Source: Microcella alkalica (GTDB taxonomy: Bacteria; Actinomycetota; Actinomycetes; Actinomycetales; Microbacteriaceae). Taken from it: a stretch of 64,000 nucleotides of DNA. The notes under the pieces are model-generated. The model was given only the letters and a program-made list of their open reading frames with translations. It had not been told where the DNA came from and ran no database searches. The position numbers and the translations under genes were made by a program. Where the stretch lies: contig NZ_JABUKC010000001.1 of the NCBI RefSeq assembly GCF_014595885.1, forward strand, positions 744,001 through 808,000, read 5' to 3'. Positions 48,733 through 51,761 of this stretch are shown piece after piece (within the stretch, counting starts at the first letter, position 1; every line of letters starts with the position of its first letter).

Positions 48733-50763
48733 TCAGGCGGCGAGCCCGCGGCGCGTCAGGAGCGGCTCGATGACGGCGTCGCGACCCCGGAACGCACGGT
48801 AGGCCTCGAGCGGGTCGCCCGCGCCGCCGAGCCCGAGCACGTGCTGCCGGAAGCGATCGCCGTTCGCGCGCGTGAGGCCGCCGTTCTCGCGGAACCACTC
48901 GACGGTGTCGGCGTCGAGCACCTCGCTCCAGATGTAGCTGTAGTAGCCGGCCGAGTACCCGCCCGAGAAGGTGTGCGCGAAGTAGGTCGACGAGTAGCGC
49001 GTCGGCACGGCAGGGTTGTCGAGCCCGGCCTCGGCGAGCGCCTGCGCCTCGAACGCGGCGACGTCGGTGACGGCGGCGGCCTCGGCCGCGCTCAGCCGGT
49101 GCCACGCCTGGTCGAGCAGCGCCGCGGCGAGGTACTCGCTCGTGGCGAAGCCCTCGCCGAAGGTCTGCGAGGCGCGGATGCGCTCGACCAACTCGGCGGG
49201 GATGCGCTCGCCGGTGACGTGGTGCACGGCGTAGTCGTCGAGGATCTCGGGCCAGAGCATCCACATCTCGTTCACCTGGCTGGGGAACTCGACGAAGTCG
49301 CGGTAGACGTTCGTGCCGGTGAAGCTCGGGTACACGACGTGCGCGAACAGGCCGTGCAGGGCGTGCCCGAACTCGTGGAAGAACGTATTGACCTCGTCGT
49401 AGGTGAGCAGCGTCGGCTCGCCCGCGGCGGGCTTGGGCACGTTGAGGTTGTTGACGACGATCGTCGGGTGGTCGAGCAGCTCGTTCTGACCGATGAGCTC
49501 GTTCATCCACGCGCCGCCGCGCTTGGAGTCGCGCGTGTACAGGTCGAGCAGGTACAGCCCGAGCTGCGAGCCGTCGTCGTTGCGCACCTCGAACACGCGC
49601 ACGTCGGGGTGGTAGCCCTGCAGGTCGGTGCGCTCCTCGAACGTGATGCCGTACACCTTCGTCGCGGCGGCGAAGACGCCCTGCTGCAGCACGCGCTCGG
49701 CCTCGAAGTAGGGGCGCAGCTCGCCGAGGTCGACGTCGTACTCGGCCTTGCGCACCTTCTCGGCGTAGAAGGCCCAGTCGTGGGCCTCGATCGGGTGGCC
49801 GGCGAGCCCCTCGAGCTGCGCCTGCTCGCGGCGGGCGTTGCGCGCGGCGACCGGAGCGAGCTGGCCCAGCATCGCCGCGACCGCCTCGGGCGTCTTCGCG
49901 GTCTGGCCCGCGGTGACCCAGGCGGCGTGGCTCGCGAAGCCGAGCAGCTCGGCGCGCTCGGCGCGCAGCCGCACGATCTCGAGCAGCACGGCGCTGTTGT
50001 CGTGCTCGTTGCCGCGCGCGGCCCGCTGACGGGATGCCCGCATGACGCGCTCGCGCAGGTCGCGGTTCGTGAGGCTCGCCAGGTGCGGGTGCCCCGTCGG
50101 CAGCACGAGCGTGATGAGGTGCTTGCCCTCGAGCCCGCGGTCGGCGGCGGCCTGCGCGGCGGCGGAGATCTCGCCGGCGGTGAGGCCGTCGAGCTCGGCG
50201 ACGTCGTCGACGACGACGGCGAGGTCGTTCGTGTCGGCGAGCAGGTTCTTCTCGAAGCGGGTCTCGAGCACCGACAGGCGCTGGTTGAGCTCGGAGAGGC
50301 GGGCCTTGGCCTCGTCGTCGAGGCCCGCGCCGGCGAGCGTCATGCGCGTGAAGCGGCGCTCGACGAGGTAGCGCTGCTCGGCCGTGAGGTCGAGGGAGTC
50401 GAGGTGCTCGTGCAGGTGGCGGATGCGGGCGTAGAGCGCGCCGTCGAGCTCGATCGCATCCTGGTGCGCCGAGAGCACGGGGGCGAAGCGCTCCTCGAGC
50501 TCGGCGAGCTCGTCGCTGGAGTCGGCCGACGACTGGTTGAAGAAGACCCGCAGCACGCGCGTGAGCGTCTGCCCGCTCTGCTCGAGGGGCACCATCGTGT
50601 TCTCGAACGTGGCCATGTCGCGCCGCCGCGTGATGTTCGCGATCTCGCGGCGCTGCTCGTCGATGCCGGCCTCGATCGCCGGCGCGTAGTGCTCCAGCCG
50701 CAGCTCGGAGAAGGGGGGCAGCTGGTACGGCAGCGGGCTGGGGGAGAGGAAGGGGTTGCTCAT
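48733..50763 (-). CDS. M3-family metallopeptidase (oligopeptidase/peptidyl-dipeptidase Dcp type)
   Basis: 676 residues. The zinc site is FHEFGHALHGL (HExxH) with the third ligand Glu in FVEFPSQVNEMW. The mostly helical N-terminal half and the length match Dcp/OpdA. It has no signal peptide, so it degrades short peptides in the cytoplasm. It ends 4 nt from the convergent Eis-like gene and is divergent from the ArsR-type regulator across a tandem-repeat array. Confidence 0.94.
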   Translation of the reverse strand: MSNPFLSPSPLPYQLPPFSELRLEHYAPAIEAGIDEQRREIANITRRRDMATFENTMVPLEQSGQTLTRVLRVFFNQSSADSSDELAELEERFAPVLSAHQDAIELDGALYARIRHLHEHLDSLDLTAEQRYLVERRFTRMTLAGAGLDDEAKARLSELNQRLSVLETRFEKNLLADTNDLAVVVDDVAELDGLTAGEISAAAQAAADRGLEGKHLITLVLPTGHPHLASLTNRDLRERVMRASRQRAARGNEHDNSAVLLEIVRLRAERAELLGFASHAAWVTAGQTAKTPEAVAAMLGQLAPVAARNARREQAQLEGLAGHPIEAHDWAFYAEKVRKAEYDVDLGELRPYFEAERVLQQGVFAAATKVYGITFEERTDLQGYHPDVRVFEVRNDDGSQLGLYLLDLYTRDSKRGGAWMNELIGQNELLDHPTIVVNNLNVPKPAAGEPTLLTYDEVNTFFHEFGHALHGLFAHVVYPSFTGTNVYRDFVEFPSQVNEMWMLWPEILDDYAVHHVTGERIPAELVERIRASQTFGEGFATSEYLAAALLDQAWHRLSAAEAAAVTDVAAFEAQALAEAGLDNPAVPTRYSSTYFAHTFSGGYSAGYYSYIWSEVLDADTVEWFRENGGLTRANGDRFRQHVLGLGGAGDPLEAYRAFRGRDAVIEPLLTRRGLAA

Positions 50764-50769
50764 GCGGCC

Positions 50770-50775
50770 AGCCTA
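50770..50775 (-). promoter_or_regulatory. -10 box of the M3 peptidase gene (leaderless)
   Basis: TAGGCT on the minus strand, 6 nt before the ATG at 50763. Its -35 region (about 50793-50798) abuts the first repeat of the array. Confidence 0.55.
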
Positions 50776-50803
50776 GGTCGGGCGTGCGACCGCGAGCGAG
50801 CAT

Positions 50804-50895
50804 CCGCAAACAACTCTCTGCAAACGGATGTCTGCAAAAAGTATTCTGCAAAGAGGTAGTTGCAAAGATGCCTTTGCAAGCGTATCTTTGCAGTC
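50804..50895 (+). repeat. Seven-unit tandem array with an exact 14-bp period (YTGCAAA iterons)
   Basis: The heptamer YTGCAAA begins at 50804, 50818, 50832, 50846, 50860, 50874 and 50888, always 14 bp apart. The first unit reads CCGCAAA and the last two are degenerate (TTGCAAG, TTGCAGT). The seven bases between heptamers are unrelated, so a binding site and not the whole unit is conserved. The array fills the space between the divergent M3 peptidase and ArsR-type genes, covers the regulator's -35/-10 region and ends at its ATG. Multiple cooperative binding of the neighbouring regulator is the simplest reading. Confidence 0.9.
50883..50888 (+). promoter_or_regulatory. -10 box of the ArsR-type gene, embedded in the repeat array
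   Basis: TATCTT, 7 nt upstream of ATG 50896. There is no Shine-Dalgarno sequence, so the transcript is probably leaderless. The box lies in repeat units 6-7. Confidence 0.6.
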
Positions 50896-51543
50896 ATGGG
50901 ACACGATCCGAACGCGAGGGCAGACCTCGAAGGCCTCAAGGCCCTCGCGCACCCGCTGCGCGTCACGATCATCGACGCGCTCTCCACCTACGGCCCGCAG
51001 ACCGCGAGCATGCTCGCCGAGCGGCTGGGCGAGTCGAGCGGCTCGACGAGCTACCACCTGCGCCAGCTCGAGAAGCACGGCTACGTGCACGAGCTCGCCG
51101 AGAAGGGCACCGGCCGCGAGCGCTGGTGGCAGCGCGTGCAGGCGCCCATCTACCTCGGCGACGACGAGCTCAACCAGAGCGAGACCGGCCGTGAGGTCTC
51201 CCGCGTCGTCATGCGAGAGTTCGCCCACCACCGAGAGCAGTACCTTCGCGACTTCATCGACCGCGGCATGACCGAGCTCAGCGAGCAATGGCAGCACGCC
51301 GCGAGCCTCAACATGGCCAACGTGCACGTCACGGCCGAGCAGCTCGAGCAGCTGCACCACGACGTGCACGAGATCATTCAGTCGTTCGTCGAGCGGCACC
51401 GCGGCCAGCGCGTGCCTGGCTCGCGACCCGTGCTCGTGCAGTTCTACGCCTTCCCGGTCGTCGACGGGGAGGAGATCCCCGCCGACGGCAGCACCCCCAC
51501 CACCGCAACCACCACCGATTCCGCGAAGGAGGACCGAGCATGA
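50896..51543 (+). CDS. ArsR-type helix-turn-helix transcriptional regulator
   Basis: 215 residues. A winged helix lies at 10-80: LEGLKALAHPLRVTIIDALS, then SGSTSYHLRQLEKHGYVHEL and a wing ending GRERWWQR, typical of HTH_20/ArsR regulators that respond to small organic ligands. No metal-binding cysteines are present (none in the HTH), so it is not a metal sensor. Residues 95-180 are a helical dimer or ligand region rich in His/Gln (FAHHREQYLRDF, LEQLHHDVHE). The tail is Thr-rich. ATG 50896 follows the repeat array. The stop overlaps a 73-residue gene (ATGA). Confidence 0.88.
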   Translation: MGHDPNARADLEGLKALAHPLRVTIIDALSTYGPQTASMLAERLGESSGSTSYHLRQLEKHGYVHELAEKGTGRERWWQRVQAPIYLGDDELNQSETGREVSRVVMREFAHHREQYLRDFIDRGMTELSEQWQHAASLNMANVHVTAEQLEQLHHDVHEIIQSFVERHRGQRVPGSRPVLVQFYAFPVVDGEEIPADGSTPTTATTTDSAKEDRA

Positions 51544-51761
51544 GCGCCGTCACCATCGACACGTGCATGATCACCATCCAGCTGCCGCGGCGTCGCACGC
51601 ACGTTCTCCGTCGCCTCGCCATGGGCGCGGGCATCGCCCTGCTCACCTGGTCCGGCGCGCGCGCCGAGGCCCCCGGGCACGACGAGCACGCCAGGCTGCT
51701 GGCGACCGAGAGCGCCGTGCGTCGCACCCGCGACGGCTTCCGCTACGGCTTCGTGCAGTAG
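51540..51761 (+). CDS. 73-residue protein of unknown function with an N-terminal hydrophobic segment
   Basis: Begins MSAVTIDTCMITIQLPRRRT. A basic stretch (PRRRTHVLRR) precedes a hydrophobic segment (LAMGAGIALLTWSGA) that may be a membrane anchor or uncleaved signal, followed by a polar tail. No family is recognised. It is translationally coupled to the ArsR-type regulator (ATGA) and followed by a strong terminator, so the two form a complete operon. It is the likely effector or partner of the regulator. Confidence 0.65.
   Translation: MSAVTIDTCMITIQLPRRRTHVLRRLAMGAGIALLTWSGARAEAPGHDEHARLLATESAVRRTRDGFRYGFVQ

What the first reader, a model, noticed from the sequence alone, without database searches (positions are those of the whole stretch)
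50804..50895. Seven-copy, exactly 14-bp-phased YTGCAAA array between divergent M3 peptidase and ArsR-type genes
The heptamer starts at 50804, 50818, 50832, 50846, 50860, 50874 and 50888 with no slippage, while the seven bases between copies are unrelated. Selection therefore holds a short site at a fixed period. Fourteen base pairs is not a helical multiple (three units make 42 bp, four turns), so successive sites rotate round the DNA, unlike usual tandem operators. The array covers the -35/-10 region of the leaderless ArsR-type gene and touches the -35 of the peptidase. A regulator that coats the array, spreading or wrapping DNA, is an attractive hypothesis. I do not recall a described ArsR-family operator of this kind.
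Basis: partly seen in the sequence, partly recalled or inferred. Interest (0 to 1): 0.82.

Follow-up and report, generated by a model that had tools for sequence, protein, structure and literature searches.

The report
Tandem 14-bp operator array, ArsR-type regulator
In front of a bacterial regulator gene sits a row of evenly spaced 14-letter sites, and related regulators keep the same step with varying numbers of sites, which suggests that regulator dimers line up side by side on the DNA to control their own gene and perhaps the neighbouring peptidase gene.

Summary
The array is real and exact: TGCA recurs every 14 bp (six cores, plus CGCA at 50805; 20,000 shuffles never passed 3). The heptamer is not the best parse. 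The unit is a 14-bp dyad, CAAAG-N4-CTTTG, repeated without gaps (six units, 50807-50890); TGCA is the junction of two units. One junction, TTGCAA at 50860-50865, fits as -35 box of a leaderless promoter. All 23 genus orthologues found carry it. Of 84 family orthologues 82 have TGCA pairs at 14 bp; the other two show variant junctions. Phase is near-absolute (485 of 507 TGCA, 122 being anchors). Relatives in other families and classes often keep abutting 14-bp dyads with changed half-sites, and half-site and recognition helix change together (44 helices, 33-0 against 0-11; not corrected for descent). Best explanation: an autoregulatory tandem operator, one dimer per unit, assembled cooperatively from the promoter outward, often up to the divergent M3 peptidase promoter. 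Binding, repression and filament formation are inferred; nothing was tested experimentally and no structure prediction ran. No description turned up in ten paper searches. New variant of a known kind.

The parts
50807..50820 (+). dyad unit 1, CAAACAACTCTCTG (outermost, peptidase side)
   Evidence: register
50821..50834 (+). dyad unit 2, CAAACGGATGTCTG
50835..50848 (+). dyad unit 3, CAAAAAGTATTCTG
50849..50862 (+). dyad unit 4, CAAAGAGGTAGTTG
50863..50876 (+). dyad unit 5, CAAAGATGCCTTTG: perfect arms, between the -35 and -10 boxes; proposed starting site
50877..50890 (+). dyad unit 6, CAAGCGTATCTTTG, overlaps the -10 box
50860..50865 (+). TTGCAA, junction of units 4 and 5 and proposed -35 box of the regulator promoter
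   Evidence: 17 bp before TATCTT; same arrangement in 119 of 126 distinct relatives
50883..50888 (+). TATCTT, proposed -10 box of the regulator promoter (leaderless, ATG at 50896)
50896..51543 (+). ArsR-type (HTH_20/HTH_5) regulator, 215 aa, no cysteine; proposed binder of the array
51540..51761 (+). small protein, 73 aa, start overlaps the regulator's stop (ATGA); no Pfam match
50770..50775 (-). TAGGCT, proposed -10 box of the peptidase promoter, 6 nt from its ATG (leaderless)
48733..50763 (-). M3 family peptidase, 676 aa, divergent neighbour and possible second target

Best explanation
The array is the operator of the adjacent ArsR-type regulator. One regulator dimer sits on each 14-bp dyad (half-sites CAAAG and CTTTG; GCAAAG and CTTTGC centres are 10 bp, about one turn, apart). 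Dimers stand side by side with no gap, each turned about 120 degrees from its neighbour (three dimers per 42 bp). Assembly starts on the best dyad, between the -35 and -10 of the regulator's own leaderless promoter, and there blocks RNA polymerase. It extends upstream over weaker units, which have one good and one poor half-site and need the neighbour's help. In many Microbacteriaceae the coat reaches the promoter of the divergent M3 peptidase gene and ties both genes to one switch. Array length, which differs between relatives by whole units, would set steepness and reach. Shown from sequence: array, phase, dyads, promoter overlap, link to the regulator family, helix/half-site covariation. 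Inferred: binding, one dimer per unit, cooperativity, repression, the signal, and any effect on the peptidase.
For: Phase: 485 of 507 TGCA and 301 of 304 GCAAAG in the 14-bp register of 122 anchored upstream regions, of which 122 and 108 are the anchors themselves. All 23 genus orthologues have 4 to 7 cores in register; 82 of 84 family orthologues have a TGCA pair at 14 bp and the other two show variant junctions. The regulator lies next to the array in 30 of 30 family loci and in the order-level loci read; 46 of 46 array-bearing genomes also searched for it have the regulator. Abutting 14-bp dyads are the single best period (of 10-20) in 75 of 84 orthologues, 40 of 57 class-wide relatives, 12 of 26 paralogues, and 21 of 44 sequences with no TGCA pair at 14 bp. 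Half-site first base and helix residue 48 change together, 33-0 and 0-11 among 44 distinct helices. The -35 box is a junction in 119 of 126. Conservation falls with distance from the promoter dyad. Odd and even unit numbers are equally common, 60 and 62. Eight of 26 paralogues show a single dyad of the TGAAACATGTCTTTCA type. Spacers are no more alike within a genome than between genomes, 1.98 and 1.93 of 5.
Against: No binding, expression or structural data; the structure predictor never ran. Upstream units have degenerate right arms, so head-to-tail protomers are not excluded. Period 14 was not the single best in 9 of 84 orthologues (6 ties), 17 of 57 class-wide relatives (9 ties), 14 of 26 paralogues (7 ties; period 13 in 3) and 6 of 16 loci from other classes (1 tie). 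In one search, 63 of 190 sequences had no confident tandem operator and were left out. The covariation and the counts are not corrected for shared descent. The distance from array to the peptidase start varies (20 to 115 bp in 70 loci, 845 or more in 8), so co-regulation is uncertain.
Confidence: 0.66

Rival explanations
1. Head-to-tail half-site filament: each TTGCAAAG is bound by one protomer and protomers polymerise along direct repeats, as BldC does; the inverted promoter-side copies are just where the filament ends or turns.
For: Upstream copies are direct repeats: AAG follows the core in 86 of 113 at unit -1 and in 45 of 82 at unit -2, CTT precedes it in 5 and 3. BldC binds variable numbers of direct repeats this way (passages of PMC5859096).
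Against: Diverged relatives have both dyad arms (L261, L252, L267, L286); paralogues can have a lone dyad; the promoter dyad is symmetric. BldC repeats are about 9 bp.
Confidence: 0.17
2. One dimer per junction (CTTTG|CAAAG), with both recognition helices in one groove as in TubR; the N4 stretch is a linker between dimers.
For: The junction TTGCAA is itself a palindrome and the best conserved part. TubR, a winged-helix protein, coats iterons in this way (passages of PMC5016525).
Against: Lone dyads centred on N4 in eight paralogues have no such junction.
Confidence: 0.1
3. Only the promoter dyad is a working operator; the upstream copies act as a decoy or reservoir that buffers the amount of free regulator.
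For: The promoter-side junctions are kept most strictly and upstream copies fall off with distance.
Against: A decoy needs no exact 14-bp register with the promoter, yet the register is kept over up to seven cores.
Confidence: 0.05
4. Neutral tandem duplication or DNA-shape element not bound by the regulator.
For: Only that no binding experiment exists.
Against: Spacers not alike within a genome; array and regulator co-occur in 46 of 46; helix and half-site covary.
Confidence: 0.02

Closest known systems
ArsR/SmtB repressors with several cooperative sites (SmtB; CmtR; TtSmtB, PMC5658604: passages seen; CmtR known only from its title in that reference list)
   Same: Related winged-helix domain, autoregulation, several dimers binding cooperatively at one promoter.
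   Different: Size, metal sensing and no known gap-free 14-bp tandem of up to seven junctions (the last point rests on recall and on the searches made).
CodY on overlapping dyads (PMC10415144, passages)
   Same: Winged-helix dimers on adjacent dyads, cooperative through cross-dimer contacts; poor single sites rescued by the neighbour; a three-dimer complex reported.
   Different: 15-nt dyads overlapping by 6 nt, dimers related by about 60 degrees; a GAF-domain protein; sequence-poor recognition. Here 14-bp dyads abut, step about 120 degrees.
Streptomyces Zur at zitB (PMC5472717, abstract and passages)
   Same: A first dimer at the promoter, then one-way extension upstream by further dimers.
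   Different: Other protein family; no repeat sequence was found in the extended region there, while here repeats are exact.
BldC (PMC5859096, passages)
   Same: Actinobacterial regulator on variable numbers of repeats, making a filament.
   Different: MerR-like 68-residue protein, head-to-tail on about 9-bp direct repeats.
Plasmid omega repressor and TubR (review PMC5016525, passages)
   Same: Exact short repeats, number sets affinity, protein helix round the DNA, repression of own or plasmid promoters.
   Different: Plasmid copy-number and partition systems; other folds or binding modes; no partition partner seen here.
ArdK/KorA (PMC9723621, abstract and outline)
   Same: HTH repressor that can bind both direct and inverted repeats.
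   Different: Plasmid protein, one dimer; no array.

Membership tests
ArsR-type / HTH_20 winged-helix regulators | wHTH domain above curated cut-off | tested here: met
   HTH_20 41.1 bits (cut-off 27), HTH_5 35.5 bits (cut-off 22)
ArsR/SmtB metalloregulators | NCBIfam metalloregulator model NF033788 | tested here: not met
   40.1 bits, cut-off 55
ArsR/SmtB metalloregulators | cysteine metal site (motif recalled, from no call) | tested here: not met
   no cysteine in 215 residues
ArsR/SmtB metalloregulators | release from DNA on metal binding | not testable with these tools
   needs an experiment
CodY-type overlapping operators | 15-nt dyads overlapping by 6 nt | tested here: not met
   abutting 14-bp dyads, no overlap
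BldC family | MerR-like wHTH on about 9-bp direct repeats | tested here: not met
   ArsR-type domain, 14-bp step
TubR / plasmid centromeres | plasmid partition operon with TubZ | tested here: not met
   array lies on the 929-kb contig C1 beside an M3 peptidase gene and a small protein gene
cooperative tandem operator (kind) | several adjacent sites for one regulator, kept by selection | tested here: met
   regulator binding itself inferred
cooperative tandem operator (kind) | cooperative binding | not testable with these tools
   needs binding assays

The most novel reading that the evidence does not exclude
A widespread, undescribed class of actinobacterial ArsR-type regulators works as a DNA-templated helical polymer of dimers: each 14-bp dyad holds one dimer, three dimers make 42 bp and four turns, the polymer starts between the -35 and -10 of its own leaderless promoter, and evolution adds or removes whole 14-bp units to tune reach and steepness. 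One helix residue (Ser/Thr or Pro at 48) goes with the first base of the half-site.
Probability: 0.4. Interest if true: 0.75.

Novelty: new variant of a known kind. Interest (0 to 1): 0.6.

Why it matters
Nature has supplied a graded series of operators, from two to seven junctions at one exact step, with regulators that changed their half-site but kept the step. That makes it directly measurable how neighbouring dimers cooperate and how array length sets the steepness of a response. It also offers a candidate code between one recognition-helix residue and one base, and a way to find operators of many unnamed actinobacterial regulators from DNA alone.

Tried and rejected
Heptamer-plus-filler parse: dropped, because diverged relatives show both arms of a 14-bp dyad. 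Slippage or neutral duplication: dropped. Coding function: the stretch lies between genes and 14 is not a multiple of 3. RNA element: unlikely, because both genes look leaderless, so the array lies upstream of both expected start points. A-tract bend: a 14-bp step is out of helical phase (inference). Other sites in the own genome: none with three cores; with up to 2 mismatches for two cores, two further places, against 3 control matches on each strand, read as chance. Activation of the peptidase from a fixed position: not supported by the variable distance, not excluded given its weak -35.

Results against the reading, and rows dropped. Period 14 is not the single best in part of each set; the shuffles kept base composition only. 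In the 84 orthologue regions TGCA pairs at other separations also occur, e.g. 13 in 1, 15 in 1, 18 in 5; L122 has an off-step spacing. Two orthologues (L137, L145) have no TGCA pair at 14 bp; they were inspected by eye and show GCAAAG or CGCAAAG junctions at 14 bp. One search dropped 24 of 150 upstream regions as duplicates; 7 of the 126 left had no TANNNT at exactly 17 bp; 4 of 126 were not anchored. Of the paralogue matches, 26 were fetched; more were listed. Of the class matches, 57 regions outside Microbacteriaceae were read (L205-L261), L193 and the family loci apart. Of 44 helices one (L127, CGGCG) rests on a false parse of a GC-rich palindrome; without it the split is 32-0 and 0-11.

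Paper searches. None of the listings showed this operator type. One search matched 105 papers and listed 15, one search listed 8 of 17, one search listed 10 of 38. The library lacks most subscription journals.

Full report
Observation. The stretch 50804-50895 lies between an M3 peptidase gene (48733-50763, minus) and an ArsR-type regulator gene (50896-51543, plus). TGCA recurs at exactly 14 bp: 50819, 50833, 50847, 50861, 50875 and 50889, with CGCA at 50805. YTGCAAA occurs 8 times in the window against a mean of 1.19 in shuffles, 6 of them here. In 20,000 dinucleotide shuffles of the 132-bp intergenic stretch no equally spaced TGCA chain exceeded 3; 6 are observed. In the own genome the triple TGCA pattern occurs only here, and the regulator has one match.

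Genus. The four named matches are Yonghaparkia, Microcella (two) and an unnamed Microbacteriaceae genome. 23 of 26 genus genomes have a regulator match. All 23 upstream regions have TGCA cores in 14-bp register: four in 8, five in 7, six in 6, seven in 2.

Family and order. TGCAAA-N8-TGCAAA-N8-TGCAAA occurs in 75 of 398 Microbacteriaceae genomes, 29 of 85 genera; the reversed control matched one genome. In the 30 loci given, 30 of 30 have the regulator just downstream, and 21 of 30 an M3 match. In an order-wide sample 14 of 297 genomes matched, eight of them in three other families; the control matched one genome. The loci given there also have the regulator (18 loci, several of one genome). 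Of array-bearing genomes that were also searched for the regulator, 46 of 46 have it.

Orthologues as a whole. A profile search of 249 family genomes matched 122, with a gap in score between orthologues (about 165 bits and more, 83 genomes, plus one cut by a contig end) and paralogues (about 100-130 bits). Of 84 orthologue upstream regions 82 hold a TGCA pair at 14 bp; longest exact chains are 1 in 2, 2 in 12, 3 in 15, 4 in 28, 5 in 13, 6 in 10, 7 in 4. The two without a pair show the same step with variant junctions (by eye).

Anchoring. 150 upstream regions gave 126 distinct ones. In 119 a hexamer in the register, nearly always TTGCAA, lies 17 bp from TANNNT. One junction thus seems to double as the -35 box. 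In this window TTGCAA is 50860-50865, TATCTT 50883-50888, ATG 50896; the transcript is probably leaderless (inference from spacing). With 122 regions aligned on this box, 485 of 507 TGCA and 301 of 304 GCAAAG lie in the 14-bp phase; 122 and 108 of these are the anchors, leaving 363 of 385 and 193 of 196. TGCA is present at units -4 to +2 in 17, 38, 82, 113, 122, 109 and 40 of 122. AAG follows the core mostly in units up to 0, CTT precedes it in units +1 (78 of 109) and +2 (39 of 40). So there is a centre of symmetry between the -35 and -10 boxes, and conservation falls upstream of it.

What the unit is. More distant relatives changed the letters and kept the step: L261 CCAAGATTTCTTGG CCAACAACCCTTGG CCAAGAAACCTTGG; L252 GCAACGAAAGTTGC GCAATTTTTGTTGC; L267, of another class, CAAAGGGAACTTTG CAAAGACTTCTTTG; L286 GAAAGCATACTTTC GAAAGATGTCTTTC. 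The unit is a 14-bp dyad of 5+4+5 and units abut. A score for two abutting dyads was compared over periods 10-20. Period 14 was the single best in 75 of 84 orthologues, 40 of 57 class-wide relatives, 12 of 26 paralogues and 21 of 44 sequences without any TGCA pair at 14 bp, and in 10 of 16 loci from other classes of the phylum. Eight of 26 paralogues show a single dyad, TGAAACATGTCTTTCA or a near variant. This suggests that the dyad centred on N4, not the TGCA junction, is the elementary site. In the window the six units are 50807-50890 and 50863-50876 has perfect arms.

Who binds it. Of 190 sequences examined, 127 had a confident tandem operator, with 44 distinct recognition helices. Ser/Thr at window residue 48 goes with half-sites starting with C (33, none otherwise), Pro with G or A (11, none otherwise). 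One of the 33 (L127) is a false parse. The sequences share descent, so the printed P value is only a guide. With co-occurrence and position this makes the adjacent regulator the likely binder.

How it may work. GCAAAG and CTTTGC centres are 10 bp apart, about one turn, as expected for a symmetric winged-helix dimer; neighbouring dimers are 14 bp apart, so each is turned about 120 degrees (arithmetic at 10.5 bp per turn). Junction numbers are odd in 60 and even in 62 of 122, which suits one dimer per unit. Spacers within a genome are no more alike than between genomes (1.98 and 1.93 of 5; 2 of 243 identical), so the period looks kept by selection, not by recent copying. The promoter dyad fills the spacer between -35 and -10, so repression of the own gene is the simplest outcome. 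Upstream units, weaker in one arm, would fill by contact with the neighbour; CodY and Zur show that such cooperation exists in other families (passages of PMC10415144 and PMC5472717).

The peptidase. A divergent M3 gene was found in 78 of 122 anchored loci, 70 of them with 115 bp or less between M3 start and array; in 25 the gap is 20-24 bp, which puts the outermost core between the M3 -10 and -35 positions. A -10 (TANNNT) lies 5-8 nt from the M3 ATG in 75 of 78; the -35 matches TTGACA in 1 to 4 of 6 bases, 2 being commonest. Co-regulation is plausible, its sign open. Loci with at least 600 bp upstream and no M3 (23) average 4.26 junctions, those with M3 5.0 (not corrected for descent).

The operon. 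Of 150 loci, 112 gave a distinct downstream ORF by the rule used, 16 none, 21 were duplicates and 1 was cut. 86 of the 112 start at -4 (ATGA overlap), and 74 of these 86 are complete proteins of 110 residues or less. Seven of the 86 are long ORFs of the MFS type; one was tested and matches MFS_3 and MFS_1. The five small proteins submitted have no Pfam match above cut-off. By tblastn an MFS exporter lies downstream in 17 of 57 class-wide relatives, 9 of 84 orthologues and 2 of 26 paralogues; flanks were short, so these are lower bounds. No M3 was found upstream of the class-wide relatives or paralogues in the short flanks held.

Known systems. The regulator passes the HTH_20 and HTH_5 cut-offs, not the metalloregulator model, and has no cysteine. 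No solved structure matches the single sequence at E 0.01; by profile 14 distinct chains match at E 0.1, most named ArsR-type, over about the first 95 positions at most. Cooperative multi-site binding is known for ArsR/SmtB members (PMC5658604 passages), so the kind is known. The gap-free 14-bp tandem with free copy number was not found in the searches made. Of papers cited I saw passages (PMC5859096, PMC10415144, PMC5016525, PMC5472717, PMC5658604) or abstract and outline (PMC11963761, PMC9723621).

Noticed in passing
51540-51761: A small protein (73 aa) overlaps the regulator's stop codon; similar small proteins, often with a pattern like LALxxW..R, follow the regulator in many relatives. 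No Pfam match. Function unknown; perhaps a membrane or regulator partner.
   Followed up: partly
L187, L192, L273, L287 upstream regions: Some relatives have TGCA repeats at 13 bp instead of 14; three of these (L273, L287; the same helix type is listed without names) carry helices of the TN(S/T)GATSYHLR type. A sub-class with a 13-bp step may exist.
   Followed up: no
L167, L172, L173, L174, L178, L182, L188, L189 upstream regions: Paralogues with a lone TGAAACATGTCTTTCA-type dyad whose centre holds an ATG that might be the start codon itself.
   Followed up: no
L047, L048, L066, L116, L124, L150, L151, L159: An MFS-type exporter gene directly follows the regulator in some relatives in place of the small protein; in others it follows further downstream, which hints at an older exporter-repressor role.
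   Followed up: partly
50764-50800: The M3 peptidase promoter looks leaderless with a good -10 (TAGGCT) and hardly any -35; the same holds in relatives.
   Followed up: partly
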